NCBI RefSeq assembly: GCF_020640915.1
Contig: NZ_JADWDC010000002.1
Location: 5,832-69,831, forward strand
Direction: 5' to 3'
DNA from: Waterburya agarophytonicola KI4
GTDB taxonomy: Bacteria; Cyanobacteriota; Cyanobacteriia; Cyanobacteriales; Xenococcaceae
DNA length: 64,000 bases
The notes beneath the pieces were generated by a model. That model saw nothing but the letters and a program-made list of their open reading frames with translations. It had not been told where the DNA came from and ran no database searches. The stretch's first letter is position 1. Each line of letters begins with the position of its first letter. The position numbers and the translations under genes were made by a program. This document shows, one piece after another, positions 1 through 42,214 of this stretch.

Positions 1-325
1 CTGCTGCGCAAGGGTCTACACCCGCACAAGGGTCTACACCCGCGCAAGGGTCTACTGCTGCGCAAGGATCTACTGCTGCGCAAGGGTCTACACCCGCACA
101 AGGGTCTACACCCGCGCAAGGGTCTACTGCTGCGCAAGGGTCTACACCCGCACAAGGGTCTACACCCGCGCAAGGATCTACTGCTGCGCAAGGTTTTGCC
201 CCAGCACAAGGTTTTGCCCCAGCACAAGGATAAGCATTTACACTACCGAAATTATTGGGAGTCCCTGCTAGTCCGAAAGTAATGACGGATGCTGCTGCAA
301 TAGTTGCTAGATACTTAAATTTCAT
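1..325 (-). CDS. Secreted Cys-hexapeptide-repeat protein (3' end outside window)
   Basis: Read on the minus strand from ATG at 325, this gives a typical signal peptide (MKFKYLATIAAASVITFGLA, then a short linker to about residue 32). It is followed by an uninterrupted run of hexapeptides: two PCAGAK units, then ten of the PCAGVD/PCAAVD type, running off the left edge. Every unit has one Cys at the same place. The DNA units are 18 bp and three variants recur as a 54-bp higher-order repeat. The plus strand is also open across the repeat but has no start codon, whereas the minus frame has a start and a leader, so I choose minus. Similar low-complexity Cys repeat proteins exist in bacteria, but their function is not known to me. 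It is presumably periplasmic or extracellular, with Cys used for disulfides or metal binding (inference). Confidence 0.8.
   Translation of the reverse strand, partial: MKFKYLATIAAASVITFGLAGTPNNFGSVNAYPCAGAKPCAGAKPCAAVDPCAGVDPCAGVDPCAAVDPCAGVDPCAGVDPCAAVDPCAAVDPCAGVDPCAGVDPCAA
2..230. repeat. 18-bp tandem repeat with 54-bp higher-order period
   Basis: About twelve 18-bp units with the core CAAGG(G/A)TCTA; the two units nearest the gene start have TTTTG in place of the TCTA part. Three unit variants (ctgctgcgc, cacccgcac, cacccgcgc) alternate in the order A-B-C-A-A-B-C-A-B-C-A. This points to recent expansion by duplication of 54-bp blocks. The repeat lies inside the coding sequence and keeps frame. 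Confidence 0.9.
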
Positions 326-16977: not shown

Positions 16978-18894
16978 CTATAAATTTGTATTTAACCGAG
17001 CTTTCCTGATAATAAACTGCCACACAGTTTCCTGATGAGTAATAATATCGGCTCTACCTTCCATACCTAATTGTAGAGAGCATTGTTTACTACCTTGAGC
17101 TAAAACTAAACTATCTGGTGCGATGGTAACTTCATAAACAGCCTTGGTTGAAGAAGTAAAAGGCAAAATATTATGATTACGATCTACATTTAGAGCATCG
17201 GGAGAGATTTTACTGACAATTCCTGAAAGCGTACCATAATCAGGATAGGGACAGGCAGAGATTCTGATATCTACTGGTTGTTCTAGTCGAACTTTACTAA
17301 TATCTTGGGGTGTAATTTGGGCTTTGATTTCTAATGTCGAGTTACTAGGAACAATTTGGGCAATTTCTTCTCCAGCTTTTACAGTTTGTCCTGGGTTTCT
17401 TAAATTGAGTTTGACAATAATACCGTCAGCAGTAGCCACAATATTAGTTTTGGCTAAGTCTCTTTCTAGTTGTTTTAATGAAGAGCGATCGCGCGATAAT
17501 AATTTATTCGTTTCAATTTGTTGTTGAATTAATGCTTGCCTCTCTTTGTTTAAAGTTGCTAGAGTAGACCTACCTGAAGCTTGTTGTTGGGCAATGTTTT
17601 CTGAGGCAATTTCCACTTCCGCATCGCTAGGATTTAAGGCTGTCTGAACTCGTTTTAATCTGGCTTGGGCAGTATTGTATGCTGCCTGTTTTTCTGTTAA
17701 TTGTAATTGGGAAATTGCCCCACTATTTACCAGTTGTTGATATCTACTTAATTCATCTTGGGCGAGTTTTAGGTTTGCTTGGGCTTCTTCTACTTCTGCT
17801 ACCGTGGTGATTTTTCGGTCTTGATATTCCCGCAAACTACGATTGTGTTCTGCTCTAGCAGAGGCGAGATTACGGTCGATTTTATCAGTTTCAGCTTGAA
17901 TTTGACTTTCTAGGGCTTCAATTTGGGCTTCAATTTGGATTAATTGTAGTTGGGCTTGTTGAATATTGGTTTGCAGTTGGGTTTTTTGGGTTTCTAGCTG
18001 AGAACTATCTAAAGTCGCAATGATGTCTCCCTGTTTCACTGGTTGGTTGATTTTAGTGGAAATATCAATAACCGCAGCTTCTGCCGGGGCTTGTACCAGT
18101 CTTAATTCTCCTGCTGGACGAACTCTGGCATCTCCTTTAACTACAATTTTGTATTGAGTCACAGTTGCCATTAAAGTAGCAATGACGATCGCACTAGCCG
18201 TAACCAAACCACCAAGAATTGTCCAATTACTCACCGAAGGTAGTAATTCATTGGCTTCAATAGGAACTAACGTTCCTTTGGTAATTTGACGATCTACCTT
18301 TACTATAGGTGCAGGTATGGTGGGAACAAGATTTAATTCCTGATCAGAATTTTGTTTTGCTTCTGTCAAAGTTGCTTTGAGGCGATCAACCCAATTTTTG
18401 CCAGCATCAGATTTGAGTTGAGTTGGAACTTGAGCCTTAGATTTGGTGGTGGAAGCGATAGGAGCAAATTCCACCACTCCAGAAATATCTCTTTCAGTCT
18501 TACTAGTTAAACGGGGGCTGATTTGAATATAGCCTTTATGAACTAACGCGATCGCAGATGCTAATTCTTCAACAGGAGTATCTTTAAGTAAATAGCCTTT
18601 GCCTCCTACTTGTAAAAATTTACTAACCAAATTTTGACTATCAAAAGTACTCCAGCCAATTAACTTGATTTGTGGATAATTTTGACAGATAATCTGGGCG
18701 GTACTGATTCCATTCATCCCAGGCAGAATCATATCCATCAAGACGATATCTGGATTTAGCTCGATTACTCGTTCAAATGCTCCATAGCCATCTTCAGCCG
18801 TACCGACTACCTCGATATTGGGTTCTTGTTCTAAGAGATTTTTAAACTCTTCTCTAATACTTTTTTGATCATCGACAATGAGAATACGAATCAC
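16978..18894 (-). CDS. Response-regulator receiver fused to HlyD-type secretion adaptor
   Basis: The 638-residue protein starts with a complete receiver domain (1-125): acidic pair D8-D9, phosphoacceptor D54 in VLMDMILPGMNG, conserved K104 in YLLKDT. A disordered linker (130-220) leads to one membrane helix (224-245). The rest is a periplasmic adaptor of the HlyD/membrane-fusion family: a lipoyl-like half (about 255-300), a long coiled coil (about 300-480, Gln/Ala-rich), the second lipoyl half with GQTVKAGEEIAQIVP, and a beta barrel. The start is GTG with a good AGGAG nine bases before it. It lacks a DNA-binding domain. It shares its upstream 35-bp control block with the C39 exporter gene, so it is the likely adaptor for that transporter. 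Confidence 0.9.
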   Translation of the reverse strand: MIRILIVDDQKSIREEFKNLLEQEPNIEVVGTAEDGYGAFERVIELNPDIVLMDMILPGMNGISTAQIICQNYPQIKLIGWSTFDSQNLVSKFLQVGGKGYLLKDTPVEELASAIALVHKGYIQISPRLTSKTERDISGVVEFAPIASTTKSKAQVPTQLKSDAGKNWVDRLKATLTEAKQNSDQELNLVPTIPAPIVKVDRQITKGTLVPIEANELLPSVSNWTILGGLVTASAIVIATLMATVTQYKIVVKGDARVRPAGELRLVQAPAEAAVIDISTKINQPVKQGDIIATLDSSQLETQKTQLQTNIQQAQLQLIQIEAQIEALESQIQAETDKIDRNLASARAEHNRSLREYQDRKITTVAEVEEAQANLKLAQDELSRYQQLVNSGAISQLQLTEKQAAYNTAQARLKRVQTALNPSDAEVEIASENIAQQQASGRSTLATLNKERQALIQQQIETNKLLSRDRSSLKQLERDLAKTNIVATADGIIVKLNLRNPGQTVKAGEEIAQIVPSNSTLEIKAQITPQDISKVRLEQPVDIRISACPYPDYGTLSGIVSKISPDALNVDRNHNILPFTSSTKAVYEVTIAPDSLVLAQGSKQCSLQLGMEGRADIITHQETVWQFIIRKARLNTNL

Positions 18895-20682: not shown

Positions 20683-22857
20683 TTATTCGTTTCTTTCCAA
20701 TTCCAACTCCTTAACCCCAGCAATAAAACTCAAATGTACCCCTGCTTGTTGGCGTAAATCTGCGGGTGTCCCTTGGATGCTTAGATGTCCCTCTTCTAAC
20801 ATCACGATCCAATCCGCTAACTGCACTACACTAGGACGATGAGAGATCAGGATGGTAGTTTTTCCCTGACGGTGGGATAAAAGATTGTGTAATACTTTTG
20901 CTTCACTTACAGGGTCTAATCCCGATGTAGATTCATCTAAAATCAAAATAGGTGGATCGGTAACGATCGCTCTGGCTATGGCTAGTCTTTGTCTTTGTCC
21001 TCCTGACAGGTTTGAGCCGAATTCCCCCAACACTGTTTGATATTTATCAGGTAACTTGCTGATAAAATCATCCGCTTCGGCAATTTTACAGGCTTGCACG
21101 ATGGATTCAAAAGGTATATGGGGCGTACCTAAACGGAAGTTTTCGACAATAGATCGACTCCAGAAATGGGCATCTTGGGGAATTAAGATTACTTGCTGAC
21201 GCAGAGATGCTAAAGATAAATCCGATAAGTTGTAATCTCCCAAGCGGATATTGCCCGAAGAGAGGGTATATAAACCTGCAATAACTTTTGCCAGGGTACT
21301 TTTCCCACAACCCGACTGTCCAATGAGGGCAATTACTTTCCCCCCAGGCATAGTTAAATCAAAGTCTTCTAATAATTCGATTCTGCCAGGATAGCAAAAG
21401 TTAACTTGGTTGCAGATAATATCGGCATTATCGGGAATAGTGACAAAGGGTTTCTTATCCTTAGCTGCTATTTCAGGGGTGGAGTCAATCACTTCTGTTA
21501 GCCGTTGTGTGGCGGTTTTGGCACGGGCAACACTATCAACAAAACCGATTAAGAAGCTAATTAAGTCCCAGAAGTTTCCGCTGAGGGTTTTAAATGCCAA
21601 TAATTGCCCGATACTCATTTGTTTATCGATCACTAATAAGCTACCAACCCACAGCAAAGACACACCCCCAATACCAGAAATTAAACTAGAGAAGCGACTA
21701 TTAATAATGCTGATGCGTGTAGTGGTTAAGCTGTGATTTGCCAAACGACCAAAACGATTTTGAAACTCATCCCAAAATTGAGGTTCGGCAGAGGTGGTTT
21801 TGAGGGCTAATGCACCCTTAAAACTTTCTACTAATACCCCTTGATTTTCCGCATCTAAGATTAACAGTTGACGGATTTTTTGTTGCAGGGTGGGTAAAAA
21901 GACAAAGGTGGTGAGGGTCATAATTATTCCAATAACCACCGAAATTAAAGTTAGCTGTCTGCTATAAAACAGCATTAAGCCAAAGGAAAATAAAGCAATG
22001 AATACCTGACTGGGTAAACTAACTACCAGCTTAGAAATTAAGCGTTTAATGGTTTGAATATCTTCTAATCTACTGACAATTTCGCCACTACGACGAGTTT
22101 CATAGTAGGTTAAAGGCAACCGTAATAACTGATGGGCAAAGTCTAAAACTAAACCTAACTCTAAACGTTCGCTAGCATGGGCGACTAGATTTTCTTCTAC
22201 TGTCCGCAGTATAGTATCAATAATCTTCATCACGATAACTGCGATCGCCACAGAGGTTAATAAACTAGTATCTCCCCTTACCAGCACATCATCGGTCAAA
22301 ATCTGAATTAAAAACGGGGAGGCAAGGGCGAGTAAGCCGACAATTTGAGCGTAAAATACTGCTTGAATGAGCCAATTTCGGTAGGGTATTACCCGTCTAA
22401 TAAAACGGAAAAAACCGCTAAATTCATCGTTACTTTGAGCGTTAAACCTTTCTGGATCGGGTTTTAGCAAGAGCATTACCCCATTCTTCCAACCCTCACT
22501 AAATTCCCGACGAGAAAGATAGCGAACACCGACTGAAGGATCGGCAATGACATATTTCCTACCTTTCTTACCGTAGAAGACTACCCAGTGGTAGCCCTGC
22601 CAATGAATAATTGCTGGCAGAGGTACTTTATCTAGTTGCTGGAGTAATTCCCCTGAAGCTTTACCCGAACGGGCATAAAACCCCATTGCCTCCGTACCCC
22701 TCCGTAACCCTAGTAGAGTAGTGCCTAGTTGCCCCGTCCCCACTACCTCGCGAATATGATTCAGGGTAAAGTTGCGCCCGTAATACTTGGCAATAGTGGC
22801 TAAACAAGCAGCACCACAGTCTTCTTCGCTGTGTTGTAAGACATTATGATATTTCAT
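20683..22857 (-). CDS. Peptidase-containing ABC transporter (C39 PCAT, double-glycine exporter)
   Basis: The 724-residue protein has three parts. Residues 1-130 are a C39 Cys peptidase: oxyanion Q8, nucleophile C14 (EEDCGAAC), H90 (GYHWVVFYG), D106 (IADPSVG), all present, so it should be active. Residues about 150-450 form the six-helix membrane domain. Residues about 480-710 form the ATPase, with Walker A GQSGCGKST, signature LSGGQRQRLA and Walker B ILILDES. Such exporters cut a leader behind Gly-Gly and export the core peptide. The only double-glycine peptide I find in the window is at 38204. No ribosome binding site is obvious. The upstream control block is shared with the adaptor and the precursor. 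Confidence 0.95.
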   Translation of the reverse strand: MKYHNVLQHSEEDCGAACLATIAKYYGRNFTLNHIREVVGTGQLGTTLLGLRRGTEAMGFYARSGKASGELLQQLDKVPLPAIIHWQGYHWVVFYGKKGRKYVIADPSVGVRYLSRREFSEGWKNGVMLLLKPDPERFNAQSNDEFSGFFRFIRRVIPYRNWLIQAVFYAQIVGLLALASPFLIQILTDDVLVRGDTSLLTSVAIAVIVMKIIDTILRTVEENLVAHASERLELGLVLDFAHQLLRLPLTYYETRRSGEIVSRLEDIQTIKRLISKLVVSLPSQVFIALFSFGLMLFYSRQLTLISVVIGIIMTLTTFVFLPTLQQKIRQLLILDAENQGVLVESFKGALALKTTSAEPQFWDEFQNRFGRLANHSLTTTRISIINSRFSSLISGIGGVSLLWVGSLLVIDKQMSIGQLLAFKTLSGNFWDLISFLIGFVDSVARAKTATQRLTEVIDSTPEIAAKDKKPFVTIPDNADIICNQVNFCYPGRIELLEDFDLTMPGGKVIALIGQSGCGKSTLAKVIAGLYTLSSGNIRLGDYNLSDLSLASLRQQVILIPQDAHFWSRSIVENFRLGTPHIPFESIVQACKIAEADDFISKLPDKYQTVLGEFGSNLSGGQRQRLAIARAIVTDPPILILDESTSGLDPVSEAKVLHNLLSHRQGKTTILISHRPSVVQLADWIVMLEEGHLSIQGTPADLRQQAGVHLSFIAGVKELELERNE

Positions 22858-38162: not shown

Positions 38163-38203
38163 TTCTCAAAATAAATAGAAATTAAGCATAAGGAGACAAA
38201 CAA

Positions 38204-38392
38204 ATGTCTAATAACTATGATAACGGTTTAGCCTTATTTGCAGGATGCGACAGTCTTTTCCAAGACTTGACTGCTGCTGATGAATCTACTATTGCTGGTG
38301 GTCGTCGCGGTCGTGGTCGTGGTCGTAGTAGCAATACTAGCGGTCGTAGTAGTAATACTAGCGGTCGTACCCGTACTCGTACTGGCAGATAA
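38204..38392 (+). CDS. Double-glycine RiPP precursor, Arg/Ser/Thr-rich core
   Basis: A 62-residue peptide. Residues 1-33 form a leader ending LTAADESTIAGG: L at -12, T at -11, D at -8, I at -4 and Gly-Gly at -2/-1, the consensus for C39 peptidases. The 29-residue core begins RRGRGRGR, then two exact SSNTSGR units and TRTRTGR. It has 11 Ser/Thr, 10 Arg, 6 Gly, 2 Asn and no Cys. A strong ribosome binding site (AAGGAGA, 38190-38196) precedes it. Downstream on the same strand are a kinase and a HopA1-type lyase that could dehydrate the Ser/Thr. Without modification it would be a cationic secreted peptide. Nucleotide repeats in the core suggest recent expansion. Confidence 0.88.
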   Translation: MSNNYDNGLALFAGCDSLFQDLTAADESTIAGGRRGRGRGRSSNTSGRSSNTSGRTRTRTGR

Positions 38393-38400
38393 TATTCTTT

Positions 38401-38445
38401 TCTTTTTGGGGTGAATATTGAGCAAGAATATCCACCCCAAAAAGA
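38401..38445 (+). terminator. 19-bp hairpin behind the precursor gene
   Basis: Arms at 38401-38419 and 38427-38445 (TCTTTTTGGGGTG core) pair over 19 bp with one mismatch and a 7-nt loop, 8 bp behind the stop codon. No T-run follows, so it probably stabilises the 3' end or attenuates rather than terminates fully. Confidence 0.65.
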
Positions 38446-38494
38446 TAGTCAAGGATATTACTTTATCCCCAGCTAAAAAGTCTACTTTCATTAT

Positions 38495-38544
38495 ACTAGG
38501 GTTTTTAATGTCGAGACATCGGGATTGGAAACCCTAGTTCTTTT
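38495..38544 (+). terminator. Second hairpin with T-rich tail
   Basis: ACTAGGGTTT (38495-38504) and AAACCCTAGT (38529-38538) are perfect arms, with an inner ATGTC-GA-GACAT stem in the loop, followed by TCTTTTC. With the preceding hairpin it would limit read-through from the precursor into the enzyme genes. Confidence 0.65.
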
Positions 38545-38616
38545 CAAGTTAAGAGATTTAGTAATAAGTAATCAAAAAAAACAATTAACAGATGACGGCA
38601 TAAGAGTATAAAAATC

Positions 38617-39804
38617 ATGGTTTTTAGCTTAAGTTCGCACAATGTTTGGCAGTATTTACAAGCTAGAAATATTTGCTCATCTACCGAAATATCTCCTAGC
38701 GCAATTAAACCCAAGGATTGTAAAAATTTTAATCTTTTGGTTAGTTTTTCTGATAATTGCCATTATCTAGTTAAACAGGAATGTTGGGATACTCAAGGTA
38801 AAACTAAAGGAGAATTTCAGCAGGAATGGCTAATTCAAAGGTTAGTTCGTCACTTCCCTCAACTTAATTGTTTACAGAATGTTATTAGTGAAGCTATTGA
38901 TTACGATCGCGACAACTCGATTATTGTTTTTAATTATCTAAATAACTATTGCGATCTCGCTAATTTTTATGATCAACATCAGATTTTTCCAACTGCGATC
39001 GCTACAGCACTAGGCGAGACTTTAGCAACTATTCATCGTCTTACTTTTAAGCAAAATAATTATCGCGATTTTTTAGCTAAAGATAGTAACTATAACTTAC
39101 AGAAACAACCTAATCTACTTAAATACTTGAGTCGAATTAAACCCGAATTAATCGGAAAAGTGGGAGAAGATGCTTTTAAATTTTATCGACTCTATCAACG
39201 GGAGGTAGTAATTGGTGAAGCAATTGCTCAACTTGAGAAAAAGTGGCTTCCTTGTTGTCTTACTCATCGTGATTTTCGCTTAGCTAATATTTTAGTTTCT
39301 CTATCTTGCCAAGCAGCTCTTAATGAAGCTGAATTAATATCTCTTAGCAAGAGAAAAGATGAGGCAATTATTCGTATTATTGATTGGGAAAGATTTAGCT
39401 GGGGCGATCCTGCTTTTGATTTGGGAACTATTATTGCTAATTATCTTAAATTATGGCTGGGTAGTTTGATTGTCGGGACGGATATTGATATTCGCACTAC
39501 TTTAAGTTTAGCGACTACTCCTTTAGCATTTATTCAACCTAGTTTAGTGGCTTTAACTAATTCTTATTTAGCGGCTTTTCCCGAAATTACTCATCATAAT
39601 TCTGATTTTTTAACTAAAGCAATTCAATTTGCTGGTTATCATTTAATCGAGTTAATTCTGGCAAAAATAGAATATCGCGAACCTTTTGATAATACAGGAA
39701 TTTGTCTGCTTCAGATTGCCAAGATGTTGTTGTGTCATCCTCAAGAGTCAATGATGACTGTATTTGGACAAGAGATGAACAATGAAGAATTAGCTCGTAC
39801 ATAA
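38617..39804 (+). CDS. APH-fold kinase (LanK/TvaC-like) of the RiPP locus
   Basis: The 395-residue protein has the aminoglycoside/choline-kinase fold: catalytic loop CLTHRDFRLANILV (around residues 219-232) and metal-binding IIDWERFSWGDPAFDLG about 40 residues later. The usual substrate-binding C-terminal helices follow. Next to a HopA1-type protein, such kinases (LxmK of lexapeptide, TvaC of thioviridamide) phosphorylate Ser/Thr of a precursor peptide before elimination. The putative precursor is 225 bp upstream and the lyase 33 bp downstream. By sequence alone it could be another small-molecule kinase; the context decides. Confidence 0.82.
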   Translation: MVFSLSSHNVWQYLQARNICSSTEISPSAIKPKDCKNFNLLVSFSDNCHYLVKQECWDTQGKTKGEFQQEWLIQRLVRHFPQLNCLQNVISEAIDYDRDNSIIVFNYLNNYCDLANFYDQHQIFPTAIATALGETLATIHRLTFKQNNYRDFLAKDSNYNLQKQPNLLKYLSRIKPELIGKVGEDAFKFYRLYQREVVIGEAIAQLEKKWLPCCLTHRDFRLANILVSLSCQAALNEAELISLSKRKDEAIIRIIDWERFSWGDPAFDLGTIIANYLKLWLGSLIVGTDIDIRTTLSLATTPLAFIQPSLVALTNSYLAAFPEITHHNSDFLTKAIQFAGYHLIELILAKIEYREPFDNTGICLLQIAKMLLCHPQESMMTVFGQEMNNEELART

Positions 39805-39837
39805 CTAATTAAGCGATCGCAGTCAGGAAGTGAAGTA

Positions 39838-40905
39838 ATGGAAATATTGAAACAGCTATCATCAGAATTGGCAGCTAGTTTAGAAGATATTGTCAATAAA
39901 ATTGAAATTGGTACGGATTTTTATCTCAGACATCCAGATTATGCTCCTTTAGAAATTGCCCCAGAAATAGTCGATAATTTGCAAAAGTTACCAAAAGAAT
40001 TTCAAAATCGATATTTTAGTTTGCAGTTGCGTAGTTATTTGGCAGATATTTATTTTCATGGTTGTATTAATCAAATTAATTCATCAGTAAAGGAAATTAG
40101 TATACCTCTGGAGAATAACAGTATTAAAGGAGTAGATCGCGATTTTTACGAACAACTAGAAGCTAATAATTTTGGCACAGGTTATTTCGATCCTGGCTGG
40201 TTAGTAATTAGAGAAGAAGAAGCTGGAAGTTTAGCTGTACAAAAAGATAATCTAACTTTTCATATTCAACGCGATCGCCATTTAGCCACTCAAGATTCTC
40301 AAGCTAATATTAACGAGCTTGTTGCAATTTTATTACCTCATAATCGCTGGCAAGATGAATTTTATGTAGCCATTAGTAATCATGGGTTAGTAGATTTTTC
40401 TCAGGATAATCAACAGCAAGTGATCGAGATTTATTTCAATACTAGCCCTGAAGGGGCAATTGTCTTGATGAGAGAATTAACCAGACAATTGAACGATATT
40501 AAAATTCCCTTCACTTTAAAAGTTCTTGACAATCCTCATAATTATCCCTGTTATGATGCGGTAATTTTAGAAATTTTTTGTATTGACTATTTAATAGTCA
40601 ATGAAATAATTAAAGCCATCTATCCAGATATACAGCCACATTTATATAATGAAACTCCAATCTGTACCTTCAAGTTAGCACCAGGAATTAGTTTGGCAGA
40701 AGCAACAGAAGACGGTTTTGTGAATAGTCGTTGTGGCGCGATCGCCTCTGGTTTATTAACTGCTTGGTATGAAGAAGATAATTCTCCTCAAAATCGTCTT
40801 CAATGTATAAAACAAGCATTTAGGTCACAAAAAATCAGTTGTCAATCTCCCTATTTACTGCAAAAACAAACGAGAAAAAATCAATATATACCTTTTGATA
40901 GATAA
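39838..40905 (+). CDS. HopA1-family protein, putative phospho-Ser/Thr lyase (LanY/TvaD-like)
   Basis: The 355-residue product matches the T3SS effector HopA1 family pattern: FYVAISNHGLVDF, then YFNTSPEGAIVLMRELTRQLN, IPFTLKVLDNP and YDAVILEIF in the order found in that family (residues about 180-265). In RiPP clusters these proteins eliminate phosphate from phospho-Ser/Thr, giving Dha/Dhb. The ribosome binding site (AGGAAG) is good. It directly follows the APH kinase and I infer that the two form the dehydratase. No cyclase or thioamidation gene is adjacent. Confidence 0.85.
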   Translation: MEILKQLSSELAASLEDIVNKIEIGTDFYLRHPDYAPLEIAPEIVDNLQKLPKEFQNRYFSLQLRSYLADIYFHGCINQINSSVKEISIPLENNSIKGVDRDFYEQLEANNFGTGYFDPGWLVIREEEAGSLAVQKDNLTFHIQRDRHLATQDSQANINELVAILLPHNRWQDEFYVAISNHGLVDFSQDNQQQVIEIYFNTSPEGAIVLMRELTRQLNDIKIPFTLKVLDNPHNYPCYDAVILEIFCIDYLIVNEIIKAIYPDIQPHLYNETPICTFKLAPGISLAEATEDGFVNSRCGAIASGLLTAWYEEDNSPQNRLQCIKQAFRSQKISCQSPYLLQKQTRKNQYIPFDR

Positions 40906-42022: not shown

Positions 42023-42214
42023 TTAATCTTCTTCACCACCTTCACCACCTTCACCACCTTCATCAGTTTTTGGTGATTGTTGTTCGGTATTAACACCTTC
42101 TTCGCCCCCTTCACTCCCTTCCGTATCACCGATTTCACATCCACTCAAATTAGTCATCAAACCTAAGAATAAAGCGATCGTTAATGCCCTAGAAGTTGTT
42201 TTTTTATAATCCAT
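42023..42214 (-). CDS. Small acidic lipoprotein
   Basis: A 63-residue product with a lipoprotein signal: basic start, hydrophobic stretch ALTIALFLGLMTNLSGC, Cys at position 26 as lipid site. The mature part is only acidic residues, Gly, Ser, Thr and Gln, ending GGEGGEGGEED from a 9-bp repeat. It is likely surface- or periplasm-exposed, perhaps cation-binding. It precedes the PepSY-like gene. Confidence 0.75.
   Translation of the reverse strand: MDYKKTTSRALTIALFLGLMTNLSGCEIGDTEGSEGGEEGVNTEQQSPKTDEGGEGGEGGEED

What the first reader, a model, noticed from the sequence alone, without database searches (positions are those of the whole stretch)
38204..40905. A putative RiPP locus: double-glycine Arg/Ser/Thr peptide plus an APH kinase and a HopA1-family lyase
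Seen: a 62-residue peptide with a C39-type leader (LTAADESTIAGG) and a repetitive core, then an APH-fold protein (THRDFRLAN, DWERFSWGDPAFDLG) and a HopA1-family protein, all on one strand within 2.7 kb. Known: an APH + HopA1 pair dehydrates Ser/Thr in class V lanthipeptides (LxmK/LxmY) and thioamitides (TvaC/TvaD). Inference: the 11 Ser/Thr of the core are converted to Dha/Dhb. The core has no Cys and there is no cyclase next to it, so the product would be a linear, arginine-rich dehydropeptide that fits neither known class.
Basis: partly seen in the sequence, partly recalled or inferred. Interest (0 to 1): 0.95.

Follow-up and report, generated by a model that had tools for sequence, protein, structure and literature searches.

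The report
Peptide kinase with disabled partner lyase
A cyanobacterium carries a small arginine- and serine-rich repeat peptide next to a peptide kinase and a partner enzyme that seems to have lost its catalytic residues, which suggests that this family makes phosphorylated peptides rather than the dehydrated ones known from its relatives.

Summary
The three genes are real and placed as described. The APH+HopA1 pair is a known cyanobacterial RiPP family (Eyles 2021, Family 1A). The predicted product is doubtful. At the positions of CaoY R187, K219, R229 and Y236 the window HopA1 has E, K, C, E: three of four lost, while the kinase keeps all ten conserved positions checked. This is not decay of one gene. 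On an unrooted kinase tree of 63 chosen rows, 31 loci with altered lyases are split from 31 intact loci by a 100/100 branch; one more altered locus, L173, lies on the intact side. Altered loci carry low-complexity cores ((RS)n, (KS)n, (KG)n, poly-Ser, Arg-rich): 17 of 21 against 0 of 68 intact, and 9 of 9 against 0 of 7 in loci fetched later. Altered HopA1 genes remain under purifying selection in the pairs tested. Best reading: HopA1 has become a non-catalytic partner of the kinase, and Ser/Thr of the Arg-rich core are phosphorylated and stay so, giving an exported zwitterionic phosphopeptide (analogy: silaffins). Phosphorylation, export and function are inferred; no product was measured.

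The parts
38190..38195 (+). Shine-Dalgarno-like AAGGAG before the peptide gene
   Evidence: sequence
38204..38302 (+). leader of the precursor peptide (33 aa, ends DESTIAGG)
   Evidence: family leader HMM aligns with GG in register, E 0.61 in 11,952 pooled small ORFs; nearly identical leader ends in L249 and L186
38303..38392 (+). core RRGRGRGRSSNTSGRSSNTSGRTRTRTGR plus stop: 10 Arg, 11 Ser/Thr, 6 Gly, 2 Asn, no Cys
   Evidence: entropy 2.17 bits
38401..38445 (+). strong RNA hairpin between peptide and kinase genes, perhaps an attenuator (inferred); no terminator match with a T run
   Evidence: fold of 38390-38475: -30.3 kcal/mol, z -6.0, 0 of 200 shuffles as stable; terminator scan found 0
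38617..39804 (+). APH-fold (LanK-like) peptide kinase; K53, E70, H140, H217, D219, N224, D256, E258, D264, D268 all present
39838..40905 (+). HopA1-family (LanY-like) protein with lost lyase residues: predicted pseudo-lyase and partner of the kinase
   Evidence: PF17914; residues E197/K228/C238/E245; AlphaFold model best matches LxmY 9dk1_B
40426..40428 (+). codon of E197, at the position of CaoY R187
40519..40521 (+). codon of K228, at the position of CaoY K219 (kept)
40549..40551 (+). codon of C238, at the position of CaoY R229
40570..40572 (+). codon of E245, at the position of CaoY Y236
20683..22857 (-). C39-peptidase ABC transporter, candidate leader protease and exporter, 15 kb from the peptide (assignment inferred; one of 4 C39 matches in the genome)
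   Evidence: PF03412 E 1.5e-35 plus ABC domains
16978..18894 (-). response-regulator receiver domain fused to HlyD, near the transporter; a like fusion lies near other altered-lyase loci
   Evidence: PF00072 and PF13437; receiver and HlyD matches in one ORF in 7 of 15 altered loci with long flanks

Best explanation
The locus makes a phosphorylated, not dehydrated, RiPP. Steps: (1) the peptide is recognised by its leader through the kinase (inferred from CaoK and LxmK); (2) the APH kinase phosphorylates Ser/Thr of the Arg-rich repeat core (inferred from intact kinase residues and family chemistry); (3) the HopA1 protein has lost the catalytic Arg and Tyr and no longer eliminates phosphate, but is kept as the folding and substrate-positioning partner of the kinase (residue loss shown, selection shown in relatives; role inferred); (4) a C39 transporter cuts after GG and exports the peptide (inferred). 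The product would be a linear, zwitterionic Arg/phospho-Ser/Thr peptide, like a short SR domain or silaffin. In the (KG)n branch, which has 0-1 Ser/Thr in the core, a 2OG-Fe(II) oxygenase follows HopA1 in 4 of 4 loci, so hydroxylysine may be the phosphate acceptor there (inferred).
For: Residues: window E/K/C/E against R/K/R/Y in CaoY and, by profile alignment, in LxmY; in 109 aligned homologues R197 is kept in 99, K228 in 66, R238 in 107, Y245 in 84. In 22 altered loci (21 taken from the kinase tree, plus L238) the Arg is kept in 0 of 22 and the Tyr in 1 of 22, the two least kept of 77 columns that are 95% conserved in the 94 intact loci; the stretch that I equate with the kinase interface is kept at 88% (window 11 of 11 columns). 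CaoY R187A nearly abolishes elimination and leaves mostly phosphopeptide. All ten kinase positions are kept in 32 of 32 altered loci of the tree. Kinase tree: 31 altered rows apart from 31 intact plus L173, support 100/100. Low-entropy core in 17 of 21 altered against 0 of 68 intact loci (Fisher 8e-15, not corrected for kinship); later loci 9 of 9 against 0 of 7. L173 shows both traits on the intact side. Six close pairs of altered HopA1 genes have dN/dS of about 0.17-0.38, so they are kept, not decaying. CaoK is mostly insoluble without CaoY and LxmK/LxmY stabilise each other, a reason to keep a dead lyase. C39 transporter genes lie near 12 of 15 altered loci with long flanks.
Against: No phosphorylation was measured. 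K228, the residue whose loss (K219A) abolishes CaoY activity, is kept here; CaoY R187A still gave a trace of elimination and R229Q still dehydrated; no Tyr236 mutant is in the parts read. So weak lyase activity is possible. Across the 22 loci the Lys is kept in 15 and the second Arg in 13, and some loci keep more of the set: L275 EKRY, L199 YKRY, L173 SKCY. Four altered loci lack a low-entropy core under my cut-off (L061, L219, L103, L184); L103 is basic and only just over it. (KG)n cores have almost no Ser/Thr, so Ser phosphorylation cannot be the common product of the whole subfamily. The association rests on one large group plus one separate case; the independent-pairs test has too few pairs to be significant. 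A side lineage with Gln/Glu/His at the Lys has no precursor nearby (40 of 40 loci), so residue loss in HopA1 need not mean phosphopeptides. The window's own nearest C39 transporter is 15 kb away, and C39 genes are also near 33 of 73 intact loci. No close relative of the window HopA1 was found, so its own dN/dS is not known.
Confidence: 0.56

Rival explanations
1. One reading: Ser/Thr are phosphorylated and then eliminated to Dha/Dhb, giving a linear dehydropeptide; HopA1 works with K228 and a different set of residues.
For: K228 is kept; fold and overall sequence still match LxmY; relatives of this enzyme pair dehydrate, and CaoY R229Q still does.
Against: Arg, second Arg and Tyr are replaced; across 22 altered loci the first Arg position holds N, Q, S, E, D or Y and the Tyr position R, D, N, C, T, S, E or K besides one Tyr, with no single substitute; CaoY R187A is nearly dead; (KG)n members have almost nothing to dehydrate.
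Confidence: 0.19
2. The peptide pathway is active but installs something else: kinase and HopA1 act as carrier and recognition proteins, and the useful property is the polybasic core itself (membrane, nucleic-acid or polysaccharide binding), exported with little or no modification.
For: (KG)n, Arg-Pro and poly-Ser cores share low complexity more than Ser/Thr; 2OG oxygenase in the (KG)n loci.
Against: All ten conserved kinase positions are kept in 32 of 32 altered loci of the tree, which suggests that phosphorylation is still needed.
Confidence: 0.17
3. The locus is decaying in this strain: HopA1 has lost function and the peptide is a remnant.
For: A same-genus genome (G070) holds only a short HopA1 remnant; the window HopA1 has a long branch.
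Against: All three reading frames are intact, the kinase is fully conserved, the same state is shared by 31 loci in several families, some outside the order, and altered HopA1 genes are under purifying selection in the pairs tested, none of which includes the window.
Confidence: 0.06

Closest known systems
Family 1A HopA1/phosphotransferase BGCs of cyanobacteria (Eyles et al. 2021, PMC8153245; section 16 and passages read)
   Same: APH next to HopA1, double-Gly leader family, cyanobacteria, cores without conserved Ser/Thr/Cys
   Different: the section read does not mention lost lyase residues, a subfamily split or repeat cores; this locus has one precursor where that family typically has several
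Class V lanthipeptide dehydratases CaoK/CaoY and LxmK/LxmY (PMC9486802, parts 1-3 of 5 read; PMC12141560 passages read)
   Same: kinase plus HopA1-fold partner, fold of the partner, leader-guided action (inferred)
   Different: three of four lyase residues lost; no Cys in the core; no cyclase gene apparent next to it (by reading only)
Silaffins and silacidins of diatoms (review PMC4557024, passages read)
   Same: repeat peptides rich in Ser with basic (or acidic) residues; in silaffin-1A all Ser are phosphorylated and trimethylated Lys are hydroxylated and phosphorylated
   Different: analogy of composition and supposed chemistry only; no homology and no evidence of silica here
Phosphorylated lasso peptides, kinase PadeK (review PMC9266682, passages read)
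   Same: a RiPP whose final product keeps a phosphate put on by a tailoring kinase acting on the precursor
   Different: unrelated core and pathway; phosphate on the C-terminal Ser
Thioamitide enzymes TsaC/TsaD (PMC8153245)
   Same: APH plus HopA1 pair
   Different: thioamide and AviMeCys chemistry

Membership tests
Cyanobacterial Family 1A HopA1/APH RiPP clusters | HopA1 (PF17914) protein beside an APH protein | tested here: met
Cyanobacterial Family 1A HopA1/APH RiPP clusters | precursor leader of the family with double Gly | tested here: met
   leader HMM built here, E 0.61 in 11,952 ORFs (weak alone), GG in register; near-identical leader ends in L249, L186. Not compared with the published Family 1A peptides themselves
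Cyanobacterial Family 1A HopA1/APH RiPP clusters | several non-identical precursors per cluster (typical, not required) | tested here: not met
   one precursor seen
Class V lanthipeptide | LanK kinase catalytic residues | tested here: met
   but NF038156 far below its cut-off
Class V lanthipeptide | LanY lyase residues R, K, R, Y | tested here: not met
   E, K, C, E
Class V lanthipeptide | Cys in the core for lanthionine/AviMeCys | tested here: not met
   no Cys in the core
Class V lanthipeptide | cyclase (LxmX-like) and decarboxylase (LxmD-like) genes | not tested
   none apparent among ORFs at 30-50 kb by reading; no HMM search and no genome-wide search made
Thioamitide | YcaO/TfuA pair | not tested
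   no search made
Altered-lyase, low-complexity-core subfamily (defined here) | kinase among the 31 rows on one side of the branch | tested here: met
   branch support 100/100, unrooted tree of 63 chosen rows
Altered-lyase, low-complexity-core subfamily (defined here) | low-entropy core (<2.85 bits) | tested here: met
   2.17 bits
Altered-lyase, low-complexity-core subfamily (defined here) | product phosphorylated and not dehydrated | not testable with these tools
   needs co-expression and mass spectrometry

The most novel reading that the evidence does not exclude
Cyanobacteria have a RiPP class of exported, polyphosphorylated low-complexity peptides, a bacterial counterpart of silaffins and silacidins: (RS)n, (KS)n and poly-Ser cores are phosphorylated on Ser/Thr, and (KG)n cores on hydroxylysine made by the adjacent 2OG-Fe(II) oxygenase. 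It arose from a dehydratase by loss of the lyase reaction while the lyase protein stayed as a scaffold, and it acts outside the cell on minerals, metals or matrix polymers.
Probability: 0.25. Interest if true: 0.92.

Novelty: new variant of a known kind. Interest (0 to 1): 0.74.

Why it matters
A dehydratase that has become a peptide kinase by losing its second half-reaction would be a clear natural experiment in enzyme evolution, and would add a product class (polyphosphorylated repeat RiPPs) to a family characterised so far, in the papers seen here, for dehydro amino acids and the rings made from them. It warns genome miners that APH+HopA1 does not always mean dehydration: the four residues can be read from sequence. 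It also offers a direct test of whether bacteria make silaffin-like zwitterionic peptides.

Tried and rejected
Single-protein search of genome contigs with HopA1 found no relative. The HopA1 tree was not used for grouping: altered members sit on long branches that attract; kinase trees were used instead. Rows dropped before the count: loci without a full HopA1 pattern, L137-L139 (remote), L224 (the HopA1 found is 2.7 kb away and taken not to be its partner), L238 (kinase cut), and the lineage with Gln/Glu/His at the Lys, none of which had a precursor; 111 rows stayed, 89 with a core of 20 aa or more. The 63 rows were chosen by me: the altered rows but L184 (long branch, degenerate kinase), 26 intact rows, and 15 later rows; the Gln lineage was left out (it was, where 11 altered rows grouped at 99). 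Later loci: of the 69 of 388 genomes matched I examined the 12 new loci that came with it (three proved to be repeats of L233, L218 and L230; L265 shows no HopA1; L261 has a cut HopA1) and ten stretches of my choice, seven of them picked for a kinase reading frame long enough to be a fusion, so this set is not a random sample. L271 ends at the contig edge and shows no precursor. The core of L249 is 15 aa, under the 20-aa rule, but is counted in the 9 of 9. 'Intact' is defined as R,K,R,Y (in one search also R,K,R,H), so the 94 of 94 is by definition. The six altered dN/dS pairs share members. The kinase-interface stretch (window 98-150) was set by me from CaoY 102-141 and not aligned residue by residue. 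Literature: searches showed me no report of this altered-lyase subfamily in the listings or the passages read; the library is open-access only and supplements were not available. Silica function: no evidence for or against was sought beyond papers. No bench or expression data were at hand.
Full report
OBSERVATION. Three genes on the + strand: peptide 38204-38392, APH 38617-39804, HopA1 39838-40905. Pfam confirms APH (E 1.1e-11) and HopA1 (E 9.4e-39). The peptide has an AAGGAG site before its ATG, and a strong hairpin (z -6.0) lies between it and the kinase gene. The genome shows one HopA1 match (E <= 0.001) and one match of the peptide (E <= 10).

THE PAIR IS AN ESTABLISHED CYANOBACTERIAL RiPP SYSTEM. 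HopA1 relatives occur in 56 of 386 genomes of the phylum sample and 15 of 27 of the family, the window's own included. 108 of 109 fetched loci with HopA1 also have an APH match, and 75 of 91 intact loci have at least one double-Gly precursor, 2.7 on average. This fits Family 1A of Eyles et al. (570 peptides in 183 clusters; section read) and overlaps with the type-B group of Liang et al., who collected only ORFs with Cys. The trio as such is therefore known.

THE LYASE RESIDUES ARE LOST. In CaoY, R187A nearly abolishes elimination and K219A abolishes it, both leaving phosphorylated peptide; R229Q is impaired but still dehydrates; Y236 is placed in the active site by comparison with SpvC. The four map to window E197, K228, C238, E245 in a 109-row alignment, and a profile of 20 family members aligns the same four columns to R, K, R, Y of LxmY (9dk1, E 1e-10). 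The AlphaFold model of the window HopA1 (mean pLDDT 75, pTM 0.54) has LxmY as its best match (E 2e-12). The window kinase keeps all ten conserved positions checked.

IT IS A SUBFAMILY. Sorting 159 loci by these four letters shows that altered loci carry striking repeat cores. With a cut at 2.85 bits of entropy and cores of 20 aa or more, 17 of 21 altered loci and 0 of 68 intact loci have such a core. The cut was chosen after seeing the data, so I looked at further loci: of those that came with a class-wide search and ten more stretches, after leaving out three repeats, 9 of 9 altered loci with a visible precursor have one and 0 of 7 intact loci do. L249 has the nearest peptide seen: MSTSNFNASALFLTSETFIKDLSEKDESMIAGG then RHGRGGGRTRTRTRG, with lyase letters E, R, R, C.

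PHYLOGENY. An unrooted kinase tree of 63 chosen rows puts 31 altered loci, the window among them, on one side of a 100/100 branch and 31 intact loci plus L173 on the other. L173 lost both Arg and has an (SK)n core: by this tree a separate case. All 32 altered rows keep the ten kinase positions. The independent-pairs test has only 2-3 pairs and is not significant; the strength lies in the group-wide pattern and in the variety of replacements at the Arg and Tyr positions.

STILL SELECTED. Six close pairs of separate altered HopA1 genes (sharing members) have dN/dS of about 0.17-0.38, against about 0.08-0.27 for eight intact pairs (computed from the dN and dS); no pair includes the window. The stretch that I equate with the kinase interface is the best kept region (88%; window 11 of 11), the Arg and Tyr columns the worst kept (0 and 1 of 22; Lys 15, second Arg 13). 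CaoK is mostly insoluble without CaoY and LxmK/LxmY stabilise each other. Hence the reading of a pseudo-lyase kept as partner.

EXPORT AND EXTRA ENZYMES. Of 15 altered loci with long flanks, 12 have a C39-peptidase ABC transporter in the fetched flank, 10 of these divergent at -4.4 to -5.3 kb; intact loci 33 of 73. The window's own C39 transporter and a receiver-HlyD fusion are 15 kb and more away. All four (KG)n loci examined have an oxygenase directly after HopA1; none of the other 11 altered, 73 intact or 40 Gln-lineage loci shows a match (family PF13759, scanned for one of the four).

MECHANISM. Shown: gene content, residue loss, selection in relatives, tree split, core composition. Inferred: phosphorylation of the core, its persistence, export, function. 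Silaffins are the nearest analogy: in silaffin-1A all Ser are phosphorylated and trimethylated Lys are hydroxylated and phosphorylated (passages of PMC4557024). That an APH-fold kinase phosphorylates hydroxylysine in animals is recalled, from no call.

LIMITS. No product data; one large group plus one separate case; weak single-sequence score for the window leader; exceptions L061, L219, L103, L184; later loci partly hand-chosen; the kept Lys leaves room for residual lyase activity.

Noticed in passing
L065, L076, L080, L085-L089 and others (40 of 159 loci): An APH+HopA1 lineage has Gln (35), Glu (5) or His (1) of 41 rows instead of the catalytic Lys (rows chosen for that) and no double-Gly precursor matched by my leader HMM within 7 kb in 40 of 40 loci; several neighbour genes are conserved. 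Substrate unknown.
   Followed up: partly
window 16978-18894 (-): Response-regulator receiver domain fused to an HlyD membrane-fusion protein near a C39 transporter; receiver and HlyD matches in one ORF recur near 7 of 15 altered loci, receiver matches near 4 of 73 intact loci, as if secretion were under two-component control at the exporter itself.
   Followed up: partly
L136, L179, L237, L269-L275: Kinase and HopA1 fused in one protein; the 10 fusions examined all have altered lyase letters, and the 8 with a visible precursor have Arg-rich cores.
   Followed up: partly
L180, L182, L183, L233: (KG)n precursors with a 2OG-Fe(II) oxygenase gene after HopA1, 4 of 4.
   Followed up: partly
L177, L178, L134, L230 and others: Several Lys/Ser cores end in a Cys-Gly-Cys-Gly-Tyr-type tail (CGCGYGC, CGCGYLC), possibly a metal-binding or cross-linked end.
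   Followed up: no
L055, L060, L077, L094, L129 and others: Intact loci often hold a second type of double-Gly peptide with an Arg run soon after GG and a longer, non-repetitive tail.
   Followed up: no
window 42023-42214 (-): Small lipoprotein-like ORF with a Gly/Glu-rich acidic tail, 1.1 kb from the locus; no Pfam or NCBIfam match.
   Followed up: no
L140 8893-9021: Short C-terminal HopA1 remnant in a same-genus genome with no kinase match: probably gene loss within the genus.
   Followed up: partly
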